From Arthrinium phaeospermum (taxonomy: Eukaryota; Ascomycota; Sordariomycetes; Amphisphaeriales; Apiosporaceae): DNA of 64,000 nucleotides. The stretch spans positions 1,550,001-1,614,000 of the forward strand of contig QYRS01000011.1 of the NCBI GenBank assembly GCA_006503535.1. The letters are read 5' to 3'. Every line of letters starts with the position of its first letter. Position 1 is the stretch's first letter. A program made the translations under genes and the position numbers. The notes under the pieces are model-generated. The model had not been told where the DNA came from. It worked only from the letters and a program-made list of their open reading frames with translations, and searched no databases. This document shows, one piece after another, positions 17,664 through 45,700 of this stretch.

Positions 17664-20600
17664 CTACCAGAAACCACTAGACTCCCTCCTGAGCGGCAGC
17701 CTCTTCTGTCCCGTACGCTGCCAGAAGAACTCCTCGCTTTCGTACATCTTGGCGAGCTTCAGGCGGGTAGACTGGACGTCATCCTCCGAATAGAGTGCCT
17801 TGTTGCCCAGCTTGGCCTCGATGACCTCGTCGAAGATCTTCTCGGCGCGCTCGAGCGCCTTCTCCCGCAGCTCCTCCTCCGACCGTGACGATACCGCTGC
17901 CGCCAACACCTTCGGCATCGTTTTGGCCTTGATGGACCGTTGATGGGCGCGCTGCCGGTAGCTAAGCGCATGATTCTCGCGCGCCGCAAGGTAGATGGGA
18001 TGGGACGTGCCCAGCGCCTCGCGCATAGTAGTGAACGCGTCGCGGTACATGGCCTCAGACTTCTCAAAGTCGCCCTTGCCGTCCAGGAGTGCTGCGTACT
18101 TCGCTTGCGAGATCGCTGTACTCGGATGCGCCGAGCCCAGCATTGCCTGCTTCACTCGCACCGTGAACCGGAAGAGCTCTTCGGCCTGGGCAAAGGCGCC
18201 TCGCAGCTGTAGGATCTGGGCTAGCTCCTCCGCGGCATCGAGTGTCACGGCGTTGGTGTCTCCCAGTAGCTTCGAGTACGAGAGGTGGGCACGCCTATAG
18301 AGCGCCTGCGAATCGTCCAGCTGGTCTAGATTCTTCATCGCGGCCGCAAATCTGTGAACAGTGAAAATGGTTCTTCCGTCCACAGCCCCCAGATCCTTCT
18401 CTTGGTGCTCGTCAAGATTCCGTAGCTGCGTTTTGACTGCCTCCAAGTCTCCCTCGGCCGCTTCCCCTAATGCTTTGGCCAGTGCGACTGTCCTCCCCAA
18501 CCGGCTGTCCTCGCGTGACACCTCGGCAATTCCGATTTGGCCAAGCATCGATCGAGAGTTGGGAAGATCACCTTTCAACTGGTATAATGATGAAAGCGCC
18601 ATTAGGGTTTCGGCTTTCTCCAACGGTGCCATTTTCTTGGGGCTCTCCAGGGCCAACCTGAAGCATTTTGTCGCCTCAACGCCGGCCCCATGCCTCATGA
18701 ACAGCCCACCAAGCACATGCCACTCTATCTCGGCGTATTTCTCCGAGTCGCTTTTCAGAAGACCCGAAAGCTCGAAACACGCTTTGGCATGTGGCATGAT
18801 TTGCCGCTCAGCGGCCTGAACCTCCTGTAGGCCCGAATTGGCGCCTTGGAGACGAATAAGTCGAACACAACAAAAGGTGGCCATCCAGGTGCTGCGGACT
18901 TTTCGGTCTTTACTTGTCATCCAGGTCTTCTGTATCCATTTTCTTGCACTCTTTTGCAGCAAGAATTGATCGACAGAGCCCGTCATTTCGCCAGTCGACA
19001 ACGTGTCGGACCAGGAGCTACCCTTTGGGACGCGAAGAAGTACGTTGTTGTTCTCCAGGTCTTTCAGGACCGGCACAAGCTTCTCTGTGTGGTCTCCAAT
19101 AGATGCTATTGCAGTATAAGTACGTAAATCATGCAAAAGTACATGTGGTGGATCTTACCCCAACTATCTCGGCGTTCATCAAGCTGGCTTAACTCTTGTG
19201 TAATTTTCTCAATGAACCCAAATGGCAGTGCATGTGATGATAGAACTGAACAGACTTGCAGTAGGCCGGCTGTAAGAGGCGATCCGTGTGACAGCCCGTC
19301 AAGAAAGGTGTCGGGATTCTGCAATAAGCTGAGGAATTGTCCTGGCGATTCTGCACGATCCTTAACGTAGGTGGCTGCACAGGATATGGCCAATGGCTGG
19401 GACCCGAGTGACTTGACAATGTCCCTGATCAGGTCCACTACGATGTCGAAATTAGACACAAGCAGGCTAGAACGGAAGGGAAACTAACCTGTCTTCTCAT
19501 CATCGGAGAGCCGGCTCCCGCTGACTTTCTGGAATAACTCGATGGCATCATCCTCTGCCCATTGAGGTATTTCTATAGTCCGCCCCCATGGACAGTAGCT
19601 TCGTTCCTCTGTTATCAGAATCATCTGACCGTGGCGTGAAAGGGGAAGGAACTCCAGGAAGTTGTATTCTGGGTGAACGTTATCAAACACTAGGAGCCAG
19701 TTGTTGCCTTCTCTCAATAGCCAGTCTTTGGCGCCTTTAACAGCGGACTGCACATCAACAGGCTCGAGGCGTTTCATGCTCTCCACTTCGAGCATCTCTT
19801 CGACATTGCGAATACCCAAGTCTTTTTCAACTTGGGCTCGAGCCTCGCGCGGGTTAGGCAACTTCTTGGCGAAGTATTTCTCGGCGTAGTAGTTGACAAT
19901 GGTCTTCAGCAGTTGCAAGTAGCCAGTGATGACAGTCTCACGGCTCTCCGCATCAATCCAGAAGCTGAAACAAACCGTGTCTTCGACACTTGCGCAGTAG
20001 TTGCGGGCAAGTGTGGTCTTACCCACGCCCTGAGGACCGAAAAGGGTGACGATGTTGAAGTCGATGTCCTTGTGTTGTTCTTGCAATAGCCCCGCGAGGT
20101 TGCTGGTGAGCCCTGAGCGAATGTCAATCTGGGCAGTGCTTTCAGGGATGCTCGAGGGGATCCTGAAATCCGTCTGCAGGTAAGCTATTTTATCACCCCC
20201 TGATGAAGTTAGAATTATCCCAAGTAGAGTAAATTCGGGTGTGCCCACCAAGCATCAGCGTTAGAGATTGCTGTCTCCTAAGCTTCTTGGCCGCTTTCCC
20301 TCTCGCGTCGTCCAAAACAGTTATGAGTCTGTCCAAGAACTTTCTATAACACGGGTCGTTTTCACCATCAAACTTCACCAGTCCGGTGTGTTTTCTCTGT
20401 AGTGTAAGCCTGCTCACATCGCTTCCTGCGTAAATGGTTTGCGGCTCGCCAACGATCTGCCGCTATTCAGCTTAAAGTCATGTATCACCACGTTGGAATG
20501 ACTTACTATATCTTTCACCCCTCTGAATGAGGTCTTCTTCTCTTCATATACCTCAAGGACTCGAATCTCCGACCGGATAGGTTTATAGGCTTCCAGCTCG

Positions 20601-21336
20601 TTATCGAGCCATTGTGCATCGTTCTCCAGCACAGAACCCGAGCGAACCATCCATGGGTCATGGCCAGCACCAAGCCAGGACACCTTTTGAATAATTTCCG
20701 CCAGGGACTTGGGCTCAGTATCGTCGTTAGGCGTGCCGAAGAAGACGACTCCTCCTGTCAATGACTCGATTGACCGCAGATCTTTGTCATGCGACTCGCT
20801 GGAGAAGATGAGTGCCCTCTTCACGATAAGTCCCCCTAAGCTATGGGTGATGAAGACAATAGGTCTATCAGGAGGCGTTTTTGATTGGCGACGGTGCTCG
20901 GCGATGGCTTGGACCAAACTGTGTGCCCTGCTGTAAAGGACCTGGCGAATATGCGAGTGTGATTCGAAGATATCCGGATCATAAGAATACGTGAGAATGC
21001 GTATTCTTTTCCCGCATTCATCTTGTGCTAGCCCTGCTTCGAGCCAGTTCTGCCGCCGTAAAGTCCCGGTGCCCCATGTCCAAGTTTTGAACCCCCGGGC
21101 TAATCCATGGACTGCGACGACACTGTAGCGCATGTCAGTGATCACATAGGAGCATTGGAAGTCCAGTCTCTGATATAATCTTACTCAATTAATGGCCCCT
21201 CTGTTTTCGAGGGGTTATGGACTACTTTAAGCTCGCCGTCGACTTCCCCTGAGTTTGCCGAGTCATTCTTCAATATGGATCTTGCTCGTTGCAGGAATCC
21301 AACCGAGTTGGGTCGTGGCTCAGGTGCCATGAGCAT
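17664..21336 (-). CDS. NLR-type STAND protein: SesB-like hydrolase, NB-ARC, TPR
   Basis: Six exons on the minus strand: 21185-21336, 20507-21122, 20249-20456, 19489-20199, 19159-19437 and 17664-19105, 1135 residues. Residues 51-250 form an alpha/beta hydrolase of the SesB type: VVAVHGLARGFKTW and the elbow THSLGG with Ser145. The NB-ARC domain begins at about 351, with P-loop GPQGVGKTT (380-388) and Walker B-like NWLLVFDNVH, then a winged-helix region. About 700-1100 is helical TPR of the kinesin-light-chain type (AEELFRF, SEAMYRDAF repeats). Such fungal NLRs act in non-self recognition and cell death in the cytosol. All introns are 49-62 bp. The start was placed in an upstream exon because its frame joins cleanly. 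The next gene upstream is the CHAT protease. Confidence 0.85.
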
Positions 21337-22318
21337 GGCATGACCGCGGAGGCGCTGTTGACAAGTTGATTGAAGACCACGAAGAGAGAAAGCAAGAATT
21401 CCCTTGCTATATCATTATTCAATTGACTATCCCGTGATAGATTTTGCTGTAGCACCACAATCGAATGTCGTTATGGAATAGCACACGGGAATACGTTGAA
21501 GGTTGCATAACTTGGAAGTGGAAAAAGCCGCCCGGCGGGTGAGACAAGCACTTTCAGCTGAGCTATGTGGCGTTGTCATTCACGGCAACGAAGCAATGGG
21601 ATCCCCGGGAGTTGTTGCATTTGGTGTGTCTGCAGGTTTGCTTCGCCCAATCAAGGGGGGGCAGTCCAGCATGTCACAGCAAACCAAGCCACCCGCCATT
21701 CGCCAAACGCGATACTGAGATGTAGGCGAAGAATATTCCAGGCTGTGCTGGCCTCAGGCGACCAGACTTGCATCTCGGGGCAAATTGATGTGCAAACCGG
21801 AAATGGAATCAAATTTGTATGGTGCACCAAGGCGAAAACTCGTCAATTGTGTTTCGTGTTAGGAAAACTAAAACGCCAGATCATACTTTGTGGTACCTGG
21901 TCAGAAGTCCACGTAGTCGGAGGAAGTTACACTGCCAAACACCTTGCTAAGAAGCAAGTACCCGTGGATGCCCGGTGGCCACCAGGAACTGGGCTAGGCT
22001 ACCTCCCAGAGCGACCCCCTCTCCCTTTCTCCCAACCAAAACGCCAGAATCCTGGAATCCCATGACAAGACGATTCGCCATCAAAAATGAGCAAACTGCG
22101 CCACCAGAGGACCTTTGATCCACTGGACATAAGATTCCAATCGTGACAGGTTCTTAATACTAGCCGTAAGCCCAAGGCCTGCGGTAAGAAATAATGCCCA
22201 TTTGCAGCTATCTGCCACTGCAGGAATTATAACGTGATCATTGTAAGAATTATTAAATATAGTAAGCTACAGTCTGATTCCCTGGTGCCCACGTTCTAGA
22301 AGATTGTATAGTATGGAT
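21337..22318. other. intergenic between NLR and CHAT gene
   Basis: Holds the NLR promoter and the CHAT gene 3' flank. A 166-codon plus-strand frame (21565-22065) has no motif or domain and is not accepted as a gene. Confidence 0.5.
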
Positions 22319-24386
22319 CTAGAAGAACCCAAAATTACCATGTGCAAGATTAGGTACCAAATCCAGTGCGTTGGGCTTTTCCAGTGCGTCTTCGTACACG
22401 GAGCTCCCGTGCGACCAATATCCCATATCCCTTGGGCGGCTCTTTTCCCATTCCCGTGGCATCCAGTTATTCTCAACCCGAAGGCCTAGGAAAATCACGT
22501 AATCAATAGCGCTGAGTTCGATGAGGAACTTTCGCAGCAGCTTGATCGTGCTCTTTCTGTTCTTGGTCCTTTGCTCAGAACCGCTGCCGAACGGCGGCCT
22601 GAACACGTCATCCAGGCCACTGATTACATGAAGCGTTCCGCCCAACGCACGTGGAAGACGGTGGCCGAGAAAGTACCCATGGGTATGCCTGGACTCTTTA
22701 TGGTGTGGTTTCGGCAGTGTTGTAATGCTACGTGAGTCGTCTTGTGGGATCTCCCGGTAATGGACCTCGTCGATGAAATTCGTACGCAGCCACATCTTCG
22801 AGAGGCTCTGAATCGTCTCTTTCATCTGTTCTTGGTGCTCTTCGGAATCACTTGCGTAGACGATGCGGTGGGTCTGAAGGTAGACCTCCAGTTCGAAAAG
22901 GAGTAATTTTAGCGGGATGATGCCGCCACCATTATCCAGTGCTGGCCTCTGTTGCCCTGGTCTAGCACGACGAAAGAATTTGGCGTTGAACCACGGCGAG
23001 ATATATCTCTTGCATGACTCCAACATCTCAGAAAGAGAATAACGGTGCTCCATGGGCTTGATGGGATTGTCGCGCGAATAGTACACAAAGAGGAAGTCGT
23101 CGCGGTATTGTCTCGCACCCGGCCATCTTTCAGGCACTGAACGAATAACTCGACGTGCGCTATGTATGGCAGCTTCGAAGGATTCATCCTTTTGGAGGAG
23201 TTGAGTGTAGAATGCGTGGTTGAAAGCCGACACGCAGTCAGTCCCTGTAGGACCCCAAACTGCGCACACCCCACGGACGTTAGAGTGCACGAGTTGTCGA
23301 GCCATGCTATAGACAGTCCCGGCTTCTTCATATGCTGACCAGCAAGTTGTCATGACGACATGCTCGATGCGCTCCTTATCAAGTAGCCTCGCAACGTCTC
23401 TGACCTCTTCGCTGGCGACGTCTTTGGGGCTTCCACCAGGCCGATTAGCAAATACAAGTTTAGGGACCGATCCTTTCTTGATGTCTCTATAAGGCCATGG
23501 AGGTTAGAATGCGATGTTATACTGTATATTCGGATCTAGAAGAAGAGGATGCATACTCATCTCCGTGCAAGTCAAAGTGTACGATGTTGAAATGCACTCC
23601 TTGCCTGCTTCTCGAGCCTAGATGCTGCCTCAATCTCTGCAGAGATCCAGGTCGCACGATCTCAAGCAGCACGCGTGTCTTGGCGCGGTTGAGCTTCCAT
23701 TGCAATCTCATCAAGGGCTCCTGGGTCAGCTCAGGTCCGACATCGCGTTTGCCCCCCGTCTTTGTCAGATCCCGAGCTACCACTAGCAAGATCTTTATAG
23801 TGCTGACACCATGCTTCTGCACATCCCCCAATTCTTCATGGTAGTTCTGCCGCACGCCATTCTTGACGTCGATTACGCGCGAGACGGCCAGAGTGTAGTT
23901 GGACGGCCAGCCTTTGCCCAGAGAGGCAGTCTCCAAGAGTTCCCACTTGAGGCATTGTAAACTCAGCTTGGAGTGATGGAAGTGGTAATCGTTCTTAGGG
24001 TCTTGGTCAATTATGTAGATGATGCATCCAGTAGATCCTCGATGGAAAACATGGTGTTGAGTCTGTCTATAAGAATCGAGCTTCAGGATCTCCAAGAGAT
24101 CTTGCGTGTAGGCGATCAGGTTGTCGTGCCATTCGCCAAGGTCGTCGTGCTCTTTGGTCGTGGCCTTGCCCAGACGAGCAAACTTTCGCGCGAGCACGTG
24201 TGCGGATTCGCGGACATAGTCGTTGAGTTGGACCTTGTAGAAATCGGGACGACGGGGATCGTGGATCATAAATTCGTCGATATAGACTCCGTTAATCTCG
24301 AGTCTAATTCTCCATCGTCGAGGGCCGGTGGTGGGGTCGGGCCGTTCCGTCGAAACGTCTGTCACGTAAATCCGATCCAAGCTCAT
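22319..24386 (-). CDS. CHAT-domain cysteine protease
   Basis: Two exons (23557-24386 and 22319-23486) with a 70-bp intron, 665 residues. Residues about 200-430 look like a CHAT (caspase/separase-like) fold. A hydrophobic strand leads to NIVHFDLHGDE with the likely catalytic His274. About 50 residues later EHVVMTTCWSAYE gives Cys325, and the 'GVCAVWGPTGTDCVSAF' region corresponds to the segment after the Cys in CHAT proteins. The N-terminal 200 residues are a mixed region without TPR repeats, and the C-terminal 200 are unassigned. Proteases of this group cleave partner proteins in cell-death pathways. It is divergent from the gasdermin-like gene (923 bp between starts). The intron falls within codon 277, three codons after the His. 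An in-frame upstream extension to 24593 exists but is not needed. Confidence 0.8.
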
Positions 24387-25309
24387 TGCAAGCAACTTAG
24401 GGTGTGTATATCTGGACCTTCGATAGCTTGCCACATCTCGCGCGCTTCCTTTCGACTCTGCCCCGAGAAGAAGAGAGGCTCGAAATTGCGAAAGACCAGA
24501 TTCTTTTCGGTCTCTGGGGTTGCACGAGGGAAAGCCAGCCGCACGATGAAGGGAAATAAAGGGACCCTTGGAGACTGGGACTCCAGCTGGCAAGGGGCTC
24601 GCAGATGCGATGTATGCCAGTCGCGCTTTCCCCAGACAGAAGTTCCAGGCTACTGCATCTCAACCGAACCCATGCAGTCTACCCCAACCTGAGCCGCGTT
24701 TGCCTCCCCCGAGGCGTTCAATTTTCCCCATCTCAACTTGGCGATTGCTTGCTTTCGTACTTTAGGTGCACCCTGTGAACTGCGAGTACATTCCTACTGA
24801 TAAATACAGCTGAGCTCATTGGCATGGACCCTTCAATGTTGTTCAAGCCACGGCGTTTCGAATATGACTTGAAGCTCATATTTCGAGGCGGATTGACGCC
24901 CATAGAAGCGCAGCTGAAAAGCCCCCAGAATTTCTCAATACAAACATCCATCAGAGATTACCCGAGGAGAGCCTTCGCAAGAATCGGGGCGCAGTTATTG
25001 AGGTGCGTGACTCCTCGTTCGCCGTACCGCCACCCAGGCTGTAGAAACCCTGCCTTCTCATTCGCAGGACTGTAAGCCCTGGCGCTTCGTGTGAAGTCAT
25101 ACCAGAATTTTTGCAAGTTTCACAAAACAGGCCTCCAAAGAGGCAACAGAACGACACAGGTCTTCAAATGAAGTCTTTCAAGAGCGACAGCCCCAAGTAC
25201 AAGAGAATTCGAAGGTTATAGTTCAATCTCCGACACTCATCGTACCAGGCACCAAGTCAAGCATACTATTTTCTGGCCAGCCTCACTATTGAGTAGAGCC
25301 ATTGGCACC
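24387..25309. other. shared upstream region of CHAT and gasdermin-like genes
   Basis: A 923-bp region between two divergent starts that must hold both promoters. No coding region was seen. It could allow joint regulation of protease and substrate. Confidence 0.55.
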
Positions 25310-26242
25310 ATGGACAACCTCAAGTCCCGAACCAAGACGCCCATCTTCCTCCTCAGCGAGCCCATCCTCGCCAGCGATTTCCGCGACAAACTGATGGGCG
25401 CGTGCATCGTGAAGCCCTACGACCCGCTCTACGCCTTCTCATCCTTCAGGGGCCCCGTGCCCATCGAGCTGCAGCCGGAGATCGACCCGAACCCGGTGGA
25501 CATCGAGAACTACAGCAGCGTGCTGAACCGAAGCTCGAGCACCAAGGTCAAGGCGACCTTCGAGCGCATCATCAACACCTTCTTCGAAAAGAGCGGCGAC
25601 TCCACCGAGGCGCGCCACGCCGCCAAGGCCAAGTGGTGGAAGATGGTCAGTCCCCACGAGCAGATGGAATCCCTCATGAAGAACCCGGCCTACGAGGACG
25701 CGGTCATGCGCCTCTTCAACCGCAACCCGAAAGAGAAGTATGTCTACTTCGTCACCAACATCCTCGTGCTCTCCACCCTCAGGGTCGAGCGGGGAACCGG
25801 GCGCTCTACCAACGCCGGCGTTGACGTGGGCGTGCCTGACCCCCACACAGGCACCGCGGTCGCCCAGCTCGGCGCCGACCACGGCTCCTCGAACGAGCGC
25901 AACATCAGCGCCGAGTTCCGTCACGAGATGATCGTGGGCCTGGGCCTATACCCCATCCGGCGGCAGGCGGGGAAGAAGCAGGGCCGCGGCGCTGGTCTTC
26001 GGAGCCTATTCAGGGGCCGAAGGAGGGGGGACGAGGGTGATGGCGGCAGAGCGGCGGCAGGGGACCTTTATGCGGGCCAGCCCATCGGCGAGAGGACCCT
26101 GCACGAAATCAAGATGGGCAACTCCATGGCCGAACCTAAAGATTATGCGCAGTTCATGAGCCACAAGAAGGGAAGCGCCGAGTCGTCTCCCAATGCGAGT
26201 TCTGAGAGCGTGCTGAACTTCGAACTTTACTTCCCGGATTAG
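25310..26242 (+). CDS. gasdermin-like pore-forming protein (RCD-1/HET-Q1 type)
   Basis: Single exon, 310 residues. The order of segments follows a gasdermin pore-forming domain. An N-terminal strand (PIFLLSEPI) leads into VKPYDPLYAF, followed by a Ser/Thr-rich loop (about 68-80). Next is a helical stretch with WWKMVSPHEQ (109-118), then YVYFVTNILVLSTLRVERG (144-162), which corresponds to the 'YVVTE-L' strand of animal gasdermins. After a loop comes EFRHEMIVGLGLYPI (202-216). A basic Gly/Arg linker (217-250) then leads to a short tail (251-310). Gasdermins insert into membranes after the tail is cut off and kill the cell. The adjacent CHAT protease supports the call. The first ATG after the leader was used. 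No family search was run, so this is a pattern-based assignment. Confidence 0.78.
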   Translation: MDNLKSRTKTPIFLLSEPILASDFRDKLMGACIVKPYDPLYAFSSFRGPVPIELQPEIDPNPVDIENYSSVLNRSSSTKVKATFERIINTFFEKSGDSTEARHAAKAKWWKMVSPHEQMESLMKNPAYEDAVMRLFNRNPKEKYVYFVTNILVLSTLRVERGTGRSTNAGVDVGVPDPHTGTAVAQLGADHGSSNERNISAEFRHEMIVGLGLYPIRRQAGKKQGRGAGLRSLFRGRRRGDEGDGGRAAAGDLYAGQPIGERTLHEIKMGNSMAEPKDYAQFMSHKKGSAESSPNASSESVLNFELYFPD

Positions 26243-42782: not shown

Positions 42783-45700
42783 CTAAGACAACACATGTGG
42801 GTTATTAAAGACGCTCCCAGTATTCGAGGGAGTCTCGTCTGAGACCTTGGTCATCCAACGCCCCAGTGCCTGCTTGACCTCTGTTCTTGCTGTCTTCACT
42901 CGTTCTGAGTTGTGGTCATTTGACCAGGGCGGCAAGACATCCTTAGCTATTTCTAACGGTGTCTTCAGACAAAAGTACTTGAAGTCATCGCTGCTGAAAT
43001 GATCGCTTTCTCTACCTGGAACGTCGAACGCCTTCGGAATATGACCTCCTTTGATGCCACAACCATGAGGGTTCGCTTCGTATTGGAGCAAGGCTTCGAC
43101 CCAATCGATCTCCAAGCACATGACAGCGATTTGAAGAGGGGTGAAAGCGAATTTTTTGGGGATTGGTGGCTTCTCAGCTTCAGGGGCCCGGGGCCTATTA
43201 GGAATGCTCGGTTTGGGGTCGGCTTTGGCGCCATTCTGCAGGACCTTCTCGAATATTCTGAAGCAAATATCCTTATCGTCGCTACGGACGCACAGAGTAT
43301 GCAGCAGACCAAAGAGGACCTCGCTTTCCAAGTCGAAGAACGCCCCTTTGTCGGTGAACAGTTCGAGAAACCCGCAGTTACGAGTCCGTACAACATACGC
43401 CGGGAGCGTGTCATATGTTTCCTTCTCGATGCAGAAAGTCTCTTTCCAGATCGCTTCTTTTCTTTTGAAGCTAAGACTCATGAATTCAGCGCTCTCCATG
43501 TACTTCTTTGCCATATCCAGCCAGCCAAGAAGCACGAGATTGAGCAAAACCCCGACGTGGTCCGCATCCTGGCCCAGCGGTCGCATCTCGATGCCGAAAA
43601 TGAGTTTGTCCCACTGTGGGAAGTTGGCACGCATTGTTCCCCTTATACCGCCCATTTGCTTGAGGTAAGCTGCATGTTGGGAAGAGGGTTTTAGTGACAT
43701 CACAACCAGATCAAATAGATCAGCATTCTCAGTCAACTCTGAGCGGCGGTGGAGAAGGGCATCTTCAGTGACCGCCAGGGCGCATTCGTCGAATGGATGA
43801 ACTTGATTTTTACGCCTTGATTCGACCAGCTGCTTCCTGAAGCCAAATCTCTGCAGTGCTCGAAAGAAGACCATCAGATCAACTTTTTTCAAGAAGTTCT
43901 CAGACAGTGCAAAAAAAGAGGCACTGCCTTTGGTGATGTGCTCTGAGAAAAGGTACTCCTTTACCGTGTAATGTGCCAGAGATACCCTGTGGACAACTCT
44001 GAAATCGGGCCAGGAGAACTTGGTTCCCAGTCTCACATCTTCTCGCTCTGTGATAGCAATGAGGCAGCTACATACAGTTCTTAGGCGGTCCACATTGTAC
44101 ACTCCAATATTTCCAAACTCGATCTTGTACAAAGACGCCTCTACAAGAATCTCGGCGATGGAGATGGTCGTACGAGGGTTGCAGAGCAGGGCAAATGCCG
44201 TGCGGGCAAATTCGCGGTCTTCATCCTTAATCTTGGCAAGAATTCGCTCGTATGTTCCGAACAGGTCGCCGGGAGAGCTTTTGATCTGCTCAAGGATGAA
44301 AGCCTCCTCTCGTGTCTGGTCGCGGCTCAGTCTCCGCACCAGGTCAAGCTGGCATTCGAGCCACCGAAACATGCCCTGGGCCCGATCGACAAGTACACCC
44401 CCCACCCGTGCGACCATTGCTTCATTCCAGTTGGGTATATTTCTGAGTTGTCGGTATGCAAGCTTTCGCATGTCATTCTTGACGCCTGCACCCGACATGG
44501 GAATCTCGACACACCGGGGCGACTGTTGAGTAAAGATCTCTCGGATATCAGCTTCGTCACGGCTGGTCACTAGAAGCGAGATCCTCCAGGAGGATCTGCT
44601 TGTGCCTATCTTGTGAAGCACTTGCGCGATATGCTCACGCTGGTGACTCTCGTCTATTGCGTCAACAATGACGTAGATACGTTCCAGTTTCTCGGCCAGA
44701 TGGTCGAGGCTCTTTAGTAGCTCGTCTTCTGTTGGCCTGACATCTTCAGAGAAGCGCTGCCGAAGCTTCTCTGGGATGTACTTAGAGTTCTTCTCGAGGT
44801 CCTTGATGATACACCGAAGAAAGTCTTCTGCCTCGTCTTTGCCCCTTGAGTGAAGGCAGTAGTAATAGGCGCAGTTCGGTTGTCCTTTGAGGTTCGCGAT
44901 ATAGTCAATGAGATACGATGCCATGACGGTCTTCCCCGAACCAGGAATGCCCCAGATCCAACAGAATCTAGGCGAGATGAGCGGACTCCTGGCAGTGGCG
45001 GCTGCGCCTTTGAGCCATTCGCAGAAGTCCAGCTCCATTGTGATCCACTTGCAAGTGTTTTTCTCCTGATTTTGACGCTTTTCGCGATGCATCTCCCTGA
45101 TCTCTTCGATATTGGTGGTCCACCAGCGTCTGAACTCTCGCATATCCCCATCTGTTTATGTTTTCGAAAATTTCCAGTTAGTCAAATTCTCAAGGGTGTC
45201 CTCATTTGCGACAGCATGGATGCTCGCTGTACAGATTGACACTTTTCCCGTATTTAATTACTTACCAGACAGTTGAGCCACCGCGACGTGGACATTTTTG
45301 CTTACGTTTCTCAAGTCGCCGTGCATTTCTTCCATACTGATCTGCATATCCTTGATTCCTTGTCTGGTTCGTACTCATCAGCATCATGGATAGTGTTATT
45401 GTTCATGAGGGCGGAAATACTCACACAAGACCAATCTGTAGAAAAATGAGGATGTGTTCTCTGAAGGACTTCAGCTGTTGGAGAAGTTTTGTAGCCTTCC
45501 CCTTGTTTACAATCCAAGCGGCTTTGTCGGACCAAACCGGCGGCGGCGGCTGCTGCTGTTCGCCCTTCTCGAGGTCTACCAAGAATGGGGAGAGTTGAAG
45601 ACTATTGGGGTCGGTTTCAACTCCCAGGATCTTTTGGAGCTCGTTGACATAGCCCCAACAGCTCTTCAGGGTGCTCGCGAACAGCTTTGACTGGTCCTCG

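What the first reader, a model, noticed from the sequence alone, without database searches (positions are those of the whole stretch)
17664..26242. NLR, CHAT protease and gasdermin-like gene side by side: a likely fungal cell-death module
Seen: a SesB-like/NB-ARC/TPR NLR (17664-21336, minus), a protein with CHAT-like His274/Cys325 motifs (22319-24386, minus) and a gasdermin-like protein (25310-26242, plus) are adjacent, with no other gene between. Known: fungal gasdermin-like proteins RCD-1 and HET-Q1 cause regulated cell death; HET-Q1 is activated by a protease partner; and fungal gasdermin genes often cluster with subtilisin or CHAT proteases, some within NLRs. Inferred: the CHAT protein cleaves the neighbouring gasdermin tail, and the SesB-type NLR is a sensor or a separate arm. 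The combination of a standalone CHAT protease with a nearby SesB-NLR is less usual than a protease fused to the NLR.
Basis: partly seen in the sequence, partly recalled or inferred. Interest (0 to 1): 0.92.

Follow-up and report, generated by a model that had tools for sequence, protein, structure and literature searches.

The report
Split NLR–caspase-like–gasdermin cell-death cluster
A filamentous fungus carries three neighbouring genes that look like a sensor, a caspase-like protease and a pore-forming executioner, made as separate proteins much as in animal inflammasomes, whereas the fungal examples in the reviews read here put the protease inside its sensor.

Summary
The genome is Apiospora-like (Sordariomycetes). 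The spliced models are clean: an NLR (1137 aa), a CHAT protein (665 aa) and, head-to-head with it, a 310-aa protein. CHAT passes Pfam's cut-off, and His274/Cys325 are conserved. The 310-aa protein had no significant sequence match and AlphaFold2 failed twice, but profile-profile comparison ties it to this genome's own gasdermins (one matches RCD-1 at E 9.8e-6; four lie near S8 proteases): score 51.6 against at most 29.3 in 400 shuffles. I read it as a divergent fungal gasdermin. Gasdermin and CHAT locus numbers are consecutive in 5 of 5 named assemblies where both were listed; the NLR is beside them in Biscogniauxia and Seiridium (two orders). New here: the CHAT protein's C-terminal half aligns to a P-loop NTPase, but the P-loop motif is absent from the window protein and 28 of 28 close relatives, while the adjacent NLR keeps its own. 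Best model: the live NLR activates this dead-NOD protease in trans, and the protease cleaves the gasdermin. The gasdermin–CHAT pair is a known kind; the split, dead-NOD arrangement is a new variant. Cleavage, NLR contact and pore formation are inferred.

The parts
17664..21336 (-). NLR gene, 6 exons (21336-21185, 21122-20507, 20462-20249, 20199-19489, 19437-19159, 19105-17664), 1137 aa: SesB-like alpha/beta hydrolase ~52-225, NB-ARC 366-590, TPR ~914-1054
   Evidence: Spliced by eye, one terminal stop; Pfam NB-ARC 32.9 bits over cut-off 23.5, TPR_12 51.5 over 30.1; the hydrolase models are all under their cut-offs. In 13 aligned sequences GxSxG (HSLGG), His281 and Walker A are in 13 of 13; Walker B [VI]FDN in 12 of 13, P0058 reading VLEN
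22319..24386 (-). CHAT protease gene, 2 exons (24386-23557, 23486-22319), 665 aa: CHAT 241-396 with His274 and Cys325; residues ~469-618 align to a P-loop NTPase but lack Walker A
   Evidence: PF12770 over cut-off; Cys325 in 35 of 36, His274 in 33 of 36; hhalign of residues 419-665 to CHAT-NACHT relatives 94.7%, P 6.2e-8; GxxxxGK[ST] in 0 of 28 close relatives and not in the window protein (sequence)
25310..26242 (+). Divergent fungal gasdermin-like gene, single exon, 310 aa; conserved core ~11-220, variable linker ~221-260, short C-terminal tail ending ELYFPD
   Evidence: Nine homologues; hhalign to RCD-1-related gasdermins 90.5%, P 1.4e-6, with controls; conservation by blocks of ten residues
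24387..25309 (.). Head-to-head intergenic stretch between the CHAT and gasdermin start codons; possible shared regulatory region (inferred)
   Evidence: Coordinates; a 98-aa frame in it matches no Pfam family

Best explanation
This is a three-gene regulated-cell-death cluster. The NLR (TPR sensor, live NB-ARC) oligomerises on a trigger. It then engages, in trans, the neighbouring CHAT protein, whose own NOD-like half has lost its P-loop and so probably cannot switch by nucleotide. Brought together, the CHAT protease domains (His274/Cys325) become active and cut the C-terminal tail off the gasdermin-like protein, which oligomerises in the plasma membrane and kills the hyphal compartment. The NLR's SesB-like hydrolase may be a second output. 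Shown here: gene structure, domain identities, conserved catalytic and Walker residues, absence of the P-loop in the CHAT protein, relatedness to gasdermins, and linkage across two orders. Inferred: NLR-CHAT contact, cleavage, pore formation and any trigger.
For: CHAT over cut-off with catalytic residues kept. Gasdermin relatedness by profile comparison: score 51.6 against a best of 29.3 in 400 shuffles; 44.5 against 29.4 in 100 shuffles when the paralogue picked by similarity is left out. In this genome four RCD-1-related gasdermins lie 0.5-5 kb from S8 protease matches, so 'gasdermin beside protease' holds locally; one was found because it lies there, three by whole-genome search. GSDM and CHAT locus numbers are consecutive in 5 of 5 named assemblies where both were listed; the NLR is two numbers from CHAT in Biscogniauxia marginata and is annotated as one 1811-aa protein with CHAT in Seiridium cupressi. 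The CHAT C-terminal half is a P-loop-less NTPase next to an NLR with an intact P-loop. A TPR-bearing CHAT protease activates a gasdermin in Podospora anserina (PMC12881547, section 21).
Against: No cleavage, interaction or expression data. AlphaFold2 models of the gasdermin were poor (mean pLDDT 42.8 and 36.8), and the first gave no gasdermin match; the RCD-1 pair alone gave only 3.7% by hhalign and single gasdermins 4.5-12.7%. Hypocreales relatives of the CHAT protein also lack the P-loop, yet no row of this gasdermin family is from Hypocreales, and in Metarhizium rileyi the CHAT and NLR relatives have distant locus numbers, so the CHAT family can exist outside this trio. Three of those relatives are named 'TPR repeat-containing' by their source, so the CHAT protein may hold divergent repeats of its own that Pfam misses. 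The NLR has an effector domain of its own. The A. phragmitis CHAT model lacks the catalytic stretch.
Confidence: 0.5

Rival explanations
1. Two-gene CHAT-gasdermin unit plus an independent neighbour: the CHAT protein senses and acts alone on the gasdermin, and the SesB-like NLR is a separate immune receptor that happens to be linked.
For: Published clusters are described as two-gene (PMC10197012 section 15); the NLR carries its own hydrolase with GxSxG and His conserved; the NLR and CHAT relatives of Metarhizium rileyi have distant locus numbers; a second NLR lies in the same window at 42786-45155 with no protease among the frames scanned, so NLRs occur here without such a partner; three CHAT relatives are named 'TPR repeat-containing'.
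Against: The NLR is kept beside the pair in Biscogniauxia and Seiridium, two orders; Pfam finds no repeats in the window's CHAT protein, whose NOD-like half has no P-loop.
Confidence: 0.33
2. The 310-aa protein is not a gasdermin but a lineage-specific substrate or regulator of the CHAT protease; the cluster kills, or signals, by another route such as the SesB-like hydrolase.
For: Nothing significant or over cut-off in Pfam, NCBIfam, PADLOC or PDB by sequence; AlphaFold2 low confidence.
Against: Profile-profile match to six RCD-1-related sequences far above shuffled and unrelated controls; a gasdermin of this genome that matches RCD-1 also has no Pfam match, so the negative Pfam result says little.
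Confidence: 0.12
3. CHAT protein and NLR work as one receptor complex in which CHAT is a pseudo-sensor or inhibitor rather than the activating protease, with the gasdermin activated otherwise.
For: The A. phragmitis CHAT model lacks the catalytic stretch while its gasdermin gene remains.
Against: Cys325 is present in 35 of 36 aligned sequences; the A. phragmitis case may be a gene-model error.
Confidence: 0.05

Closest known systems
Fungal gasdermin beside a CHAT protease (Podospora anserina TPR-CHAT pair; Clavé et al. 2022, not held, seen only as cited in PMC12881547 and PMC10197012)
   Same: Gasdermin-like gene next to a CHAT gene; 19% of fungal gasdermins are reported within 10 kb of a CHAT gene (PMC10197012 section 15)
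   Different: The described CHAT partners carry TPR or NLR modules; here the CHAT protein has a P-loop-less NOD-like half and a separate live NLR lies next to it
Fungal CHAT-NLR with the protease inside the receptor ('contracted' pathway, PMC10197012 section 15)
   Same: CHAT, NOD and gasdermin in one locus; the CHAT protein here looks derived from a CHAT-NACHT protein (inference)
   Different: Protease and working NOD are on separate proteins in the window
Mammalian inflammasome (NLR, separate caspase, gasdermin D; details recalled, contrast drawn in PMC10197012)
   Same: Three separate proteins: NLR, caspase-clan protease, gasdermin
   Different: The NLR has a hydrolase at its N-terminus instead of CARD or PYD (recalled for mammals); resemblance in layout, no orthology claimed
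HET-Q1/HET-Q2 and this genome's S8-linked gasdermins
   Same: Gasdermin gene beside a protease gene (HET-Q from PMC12881547)
   Different: Subtilisin-type S8 protease rather than CHAT; this genome's S8-linked gasdermins are closer to RCD-1 in sequence

Membership tests
Fungal gasdermins (RCD-1, HET-Q1) | Detectable sequence relatedness to RCD-1-type gasdermins | tested here: met
   hhalign 90.5%, P 1.4e-6, score 51.6 against at most 29.3 in 400 shuffles; 78.9%, P 1.6e-5 without the paralogue chosen by similarity; but the RCD-1 pair alone 3.7% and single sequences 4.5-12.7%
Fungal gasdermins (RCD-1, HET-Q1) | Gasdermin N-domain fold | tested here: inconclusive
Fungal gasdermins (RCD-1, HET-Q1) | Short inhibitory C-terminal tail removed by a protease | tested here: inconclusive
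   A tail conserved at 0.48-0.70 follows a linker at 0.37-0.56; its inhibition and removal cannot be tested here
Fungal gasdermins (RCD-1, HET-Q1) | Membrane pore formation | not testable with these tools
   Needs liposome or cell assay
CHAT proteases (PF12770) | Domain over curated cut-off | tested here: met
   39.6 bits against 24
CHAT proteases (PF12770) | Catalytic His and Cys | tested here: met
   His274 33 of 36, Cys325 35 of 36; exceptions P0013 (both), P0015 and P0016 (His; N-terminally short models)
CHAT proteases (PF12770) | Protease activity | not testable with these tools
   Needs assay
Contracted fungal CHAT-NLR (protease inside the receptor) | CHAT and live NOD in one protein | tested here: not met
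   Separate genes in the window; the NOD-like half of the CHAT protein has no P-loop
SesB-type fungal NLR | NB-ARC with Walker A and B, and TPR | tested here: met
   NB-ARC and TPR over cut-off; Walker motifs; P-loop in 14 of 14 NLR rows P0045-P0058
SesB-type fungal NLR | SesB-like N-terminal hydrolase | tested here: inconclusive
   PGAP1, Abhydrolase_6 and DUF676 all match but under cut-off (likewise where found in relatives); GxSxG and His in 13 of 13 aligned
HET-Q1/HET-Q2 pair | S8 serine protease partner | tested here: not met
   Partner is CHAT; none of the 33 S8 matches listed for this genome is on the window's contig C11

The most novel reading that the evidence does not exclude
A fungal 'expanded' pyroptosis-like pathway in which a live NLR activates, in trans, a caspase-like protease that descends from a CHAT-NOD receptor whose NOD has died, so that receptor, protease and gasdermin became separate proteins independently of animal inflammasomes.
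Probability: 0.4. Interest if true: 0.85.

Novelty: new variant of a known kind. Interest (0 to 1): 0.62.

Why it matters
The reviews read here describe fungal CHAT-NLR/gasdermin loci as contracted pathways with the protease inside the receptor (PMC10197012). A linked trio with protease and NLR apart, and a dead NOD left in the protease, would suggest how a one-protein receptor can become a receptor-protease relay, and gives a small three-gene system to test how an NLR can switch on a caspase-like protease in fungi. It also adds a gasdermin subfamily that single-sequence, Pfam and PDB searches missed here, so counts of fungal gasdermins and their partners may be too low.

Tried and rejected
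AlphaFold2 on the gasdermin, twice (window query; Biscogniauxia query): too few homologues, low confidence. No structure of the CHAT protein or NLR was predicted.

PDB, Pfam, NCBIfam and PADLOC searches with the gasdermin family and with a 104-column core profile: nothing significant. A HAD-IA match in four members (best E 0.00038) is under its cut-off and covers the helical part, residues about 77-156; rejected. PF04598 (animal gasdermins) found nothing in this genome, not even the RCD-1-related genes, so that miss says little.

Gasdermin relatives in genome contigs and viral contigs: none confirmed. A DNA pattern for the core motif gave 7 matches against 16 for its reversed control, and no gasdermin among the frames printed for them. 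The two other CHAT genes of this genome (C17, C4) showed no gasdermin-like frame beside them by eye among frames of 150 aa or more, and their frames gave nothing significant in the family's profile search.

Seiridium CHAT-NLR fusion as a 'Rosetta stone': held back, because about 112 residues between the two parts align with neither family and the last ~36 CHAT residues have no match, so it may be a gene-model read-through. It still puts the two on one strand, side by side.

Searches of print: searches gave listings, aimed at split or related NLR-CHAT-gasdermin loci, all failed by time-out. My novelty view therefore rests on those listings and on passages or sections of PMC10197012, PMC12881547 and PMC9815663; passages of PMC11760362 were also seen. 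Clavé et al. 2022 and Daskalov et al. 2019 and 2020 are not held, so such a locus could be in their tables.
Full report
WHERE. The window lies at G000:C11:1550001-1614000 of a 48.4-Mb, 19-contig genome. The gasdermin-like product is 95% identical to one of Apiospora marii, and the NLR is 98% identical over 480 residues to an A. marii product, so the source is an Apiospora close to A. marii (Amphisphaeriales). No tool named the species.

GENES. Manual splicing gives uninterrupted models: NLR 1137 aa, CHAT 665 aa and gasdermin-like 310 aa in one exon. CHAT and NLR are read in the same direction, with CHAT upstream; the gasdermin is head-to-head with CHAT. The two gaps are 982 and 923 bases, and one frame checked in each matches no Pfam family.

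NLR. Pfam finds NB-ARC and TPR over cut-off, and PGAP1, Abhydrolase_6 and DUF676 under cut-off at the N-terminus. These three are among the 19 Pfam profiles that a survey used for fungal NLR N-termini (PMC9815663, passage); that they mark the SesB-like class is recalled. In 13 aligned sequences (window plus 12 of the 14 rows P0045-P0058; P0049 cut to its NLR part) GxSxG, the late histidine (281) and Walker A are in 13 of 13, and Walker B reads [VI]FDN in 12 of 13. All 14 rows P0045-P0058 carry a P-loop.

CHAT. PF12770 covers residues 241-396 at 39.6 bits; the Peptidase_C25 model matches under its cut-off. Cys325 is present in 35 of 36 aligned sequences and His274 in 33 of 36; the exceptions are P0013 (both), and P0015 and P0016 (His only; N-terminally short models). 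Residues 419-665 have no Pfam match, but a profile of this half, from the window and 19 of the 28 close relatives, aligns over residues 469-618 with five CHAT relatives that carry a P-loop domain (hhalign 94.7%, P 6.2e-8). Of the two of those scanned, P0039 has NACHT over cut-off and P0041 has NACHT at 24.3 bits, just under it. Where P0041 reads GPPGAGKS, the window reads ASDSEEHQEQ. None of the 28 close relatives P0010-P0037 has a GxxxxGK[ST] motif anywhere, against 6 of 7 of P0038-P0044; the seventh, P0038, departs at the first glycine only. The protein is thus a CHAT protease with a dead NOD-like half. That it descends from a CHAT-NOD receptor is an inference. Three of the relatives are named 'TPR repeat-containing' by their source (P0028, P0034, P0037), so divergent repeats in this family are not excluded.

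GASDERMIN. The 310-aa family has nine listed homologues (of 3248 candidates). The named ones are four Apiospora, Biscogniauxia, Seiridium and Neopestalotiopsis; the first three genera are Xylariomycetidae, the last by recall. Direct searches gave nothing significant, and AlphaFold2 failed. I therefore looked for this genome's own gasdermins. Twenty stretches of about 10 kb around S8 protease matches were fetched. Among 1706 frames from the 37 loci then held, the best frame outside the family itself in the family profile search was one in L023, at only 7.0 bits, E 0.27. It shares the core pattern by eye, lies 0.6 kb from an S8 match, and matches RCD-1-1 in the PDB at E 9.8e-6 and RCD-1-2 at 0.058. 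Searched against the whole genome it gives six matches at E up to 10: itself, one on C2 (6.9e-37), one on C7 (2.2e-8), two pieces on C12 (5.5e-6 and 6.8e-5) and a last at 9.1 that I did not count. The four genes lie 0.5-5 kb from S8 matches; the S8 match near the C7 gene has stops inside. The gasdermin tested against Pfam has no match.

A profile of four of these sequences (one as a single exon piece) plus the two RCD-1 stretches aligns with the window family over 98 columns (90.5%, P 1.4e-6, score 51.6). Controls: reversed profile 21.3; 200 column shuffles at most 25.8; 200 block shuffles at most 29.3; two CHAT and four NLR profiles at most 18.4 against the gasdermins, and four NLR profiles at most 16.9 against the window family. 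Because one paralogue had been picked by its similarity to this family, I repeated the test without it: 78.9%, P 1.6e-5, score 44.5, against at most 29.4 in 100 block shuffles. Other subsets are weaker: three paralogues without RCD-1 61.5%; RCD-1 pair alone 3.7%; single sequences 4.5-12.7%. The match rests on the core strand region, about residues 117-223, and the rest aligns only loosely. I conclude that the protein is a divergent gasdermin, with the fold itself unproven.

TAIL. Conservation falls to 0.37-0.56 over residues 221-260 and is 0.48-0.70 over 261-310 (one truncated model lowers the latter). A short conserved end after a variable linker fits a short inhibitory tail, as described for HET-Q1 (PMC12881547, passage). 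No cleavage site is proposed.

LINKAGE. By locus numbers: A. marii PG985_000484 (GSDM), 000485 (CHAT); A. saccharicola PG996_008571, 008570; A. phragmitis PG994_009009, 009010; Biscogniauxia marginata 368784, 368783, and NLR 368781; Seiridium cupressi 08343 (GSDM) and 08342, an 1811-aa protein with CHAT over cut-off and the NLR. That is 5 of 5 named assemblies in which both GSDM and CHAT were listed. What lies at 368782 is unknown. A JGI contig length of 16107 is shared by a GSDM, a CHAT and an NLR row (P0005, P0015, P0050), which suggests but does not prove one contig. Not informative: A. aurea, Neopestalotiopsis and P0009 have a GSDM row but no CHAT row, Apiospora sp. TS-2023a the reverse, and the Apiospora NLR rows come from other assemblies (rows stand for 90% clusters, so members can be hidden). 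Against a fixed unit: in Metarhizium rileyi the CHAT (ED733_008429) and NLR (ED733_005619) relatives are apart, and no GSDM row is from Hypocreales. Biscogniauxia is in Xylariales, Apiospora and Seiridium in Amphisphaeriales. Whether the flanking genes are also syntenic was not tested.

HOW IT COMPARES. A review states that about 80% of fungal gasdermin genes are clustered with protease genes, about 63% with S8 and 19% with CHAT, and that CHAT-NLR proteins make 'contracted' pathways, whereas in mammals the NLR controls a separate caspase (PMC10197012 section 15). A TPR-bearing CHAT protease activates a gasdermin in P. anserina (PMC12881547 section 21). The gasdermin-CHAT pair here is therefore a new member of a known kind; the separation of protease and NLR, with a dead NOD in the protease, is what I did not find in the passages read. 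The original survey was not held, and five later paper searches timed out.

VERDICT. Gasdermin beside CHAT: likely. NLR as the upstream partner: about even. The split, dead-NOD arrangement raises the interest above an ordinary gasdermin-protease pair.

Noticed in passing
window 42786-45155 (-): A second NLR-like frame (NPHP3_N/NACHT, 790 aa) about 16 kb from the gasdermin gene; other frames scanned nearby look like housekeeping genes (MRP-L46, GPHR-like, Nup188).
   Followed up: no
G000 C6:231804-232673, C2:451756-452505, C7:2909258-2909884, C12:1793059-1793977 (L038-L042): Other RCD-1-related gasdermin genes of this genome, each 0.5-5 kb from an S8 protease match; useful positive controls.
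   Followed up: partly
P0013 (Apiospora phragmitis CHAT model): The annotated protein lacks the stretch with the catalytic His and Cys and reads other letters there: either a decaying protease or a gene-model error.
   Followed up: partly
P0003 (Apiospora saccharicola gasdermin model): The annotated protein ends in the variable linker and lacks the conserved C-terminal tail; could be a tail-less form or a model error.
   Followed up: no
P0017-P0037 (named ones mostly Hypocreales by recall): A widespread P-loop-less CHAT family, without a listed row of this gasdermin family in the same species; its role is unknown.
   Followed up: partly
G000 C4:3254776-3255462 and C17:124296-125294 (L001, L002, L007-L010): Two further CHAT genes of this genome with no gasdermin-like frame seen beside them.
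   Followed up: partly
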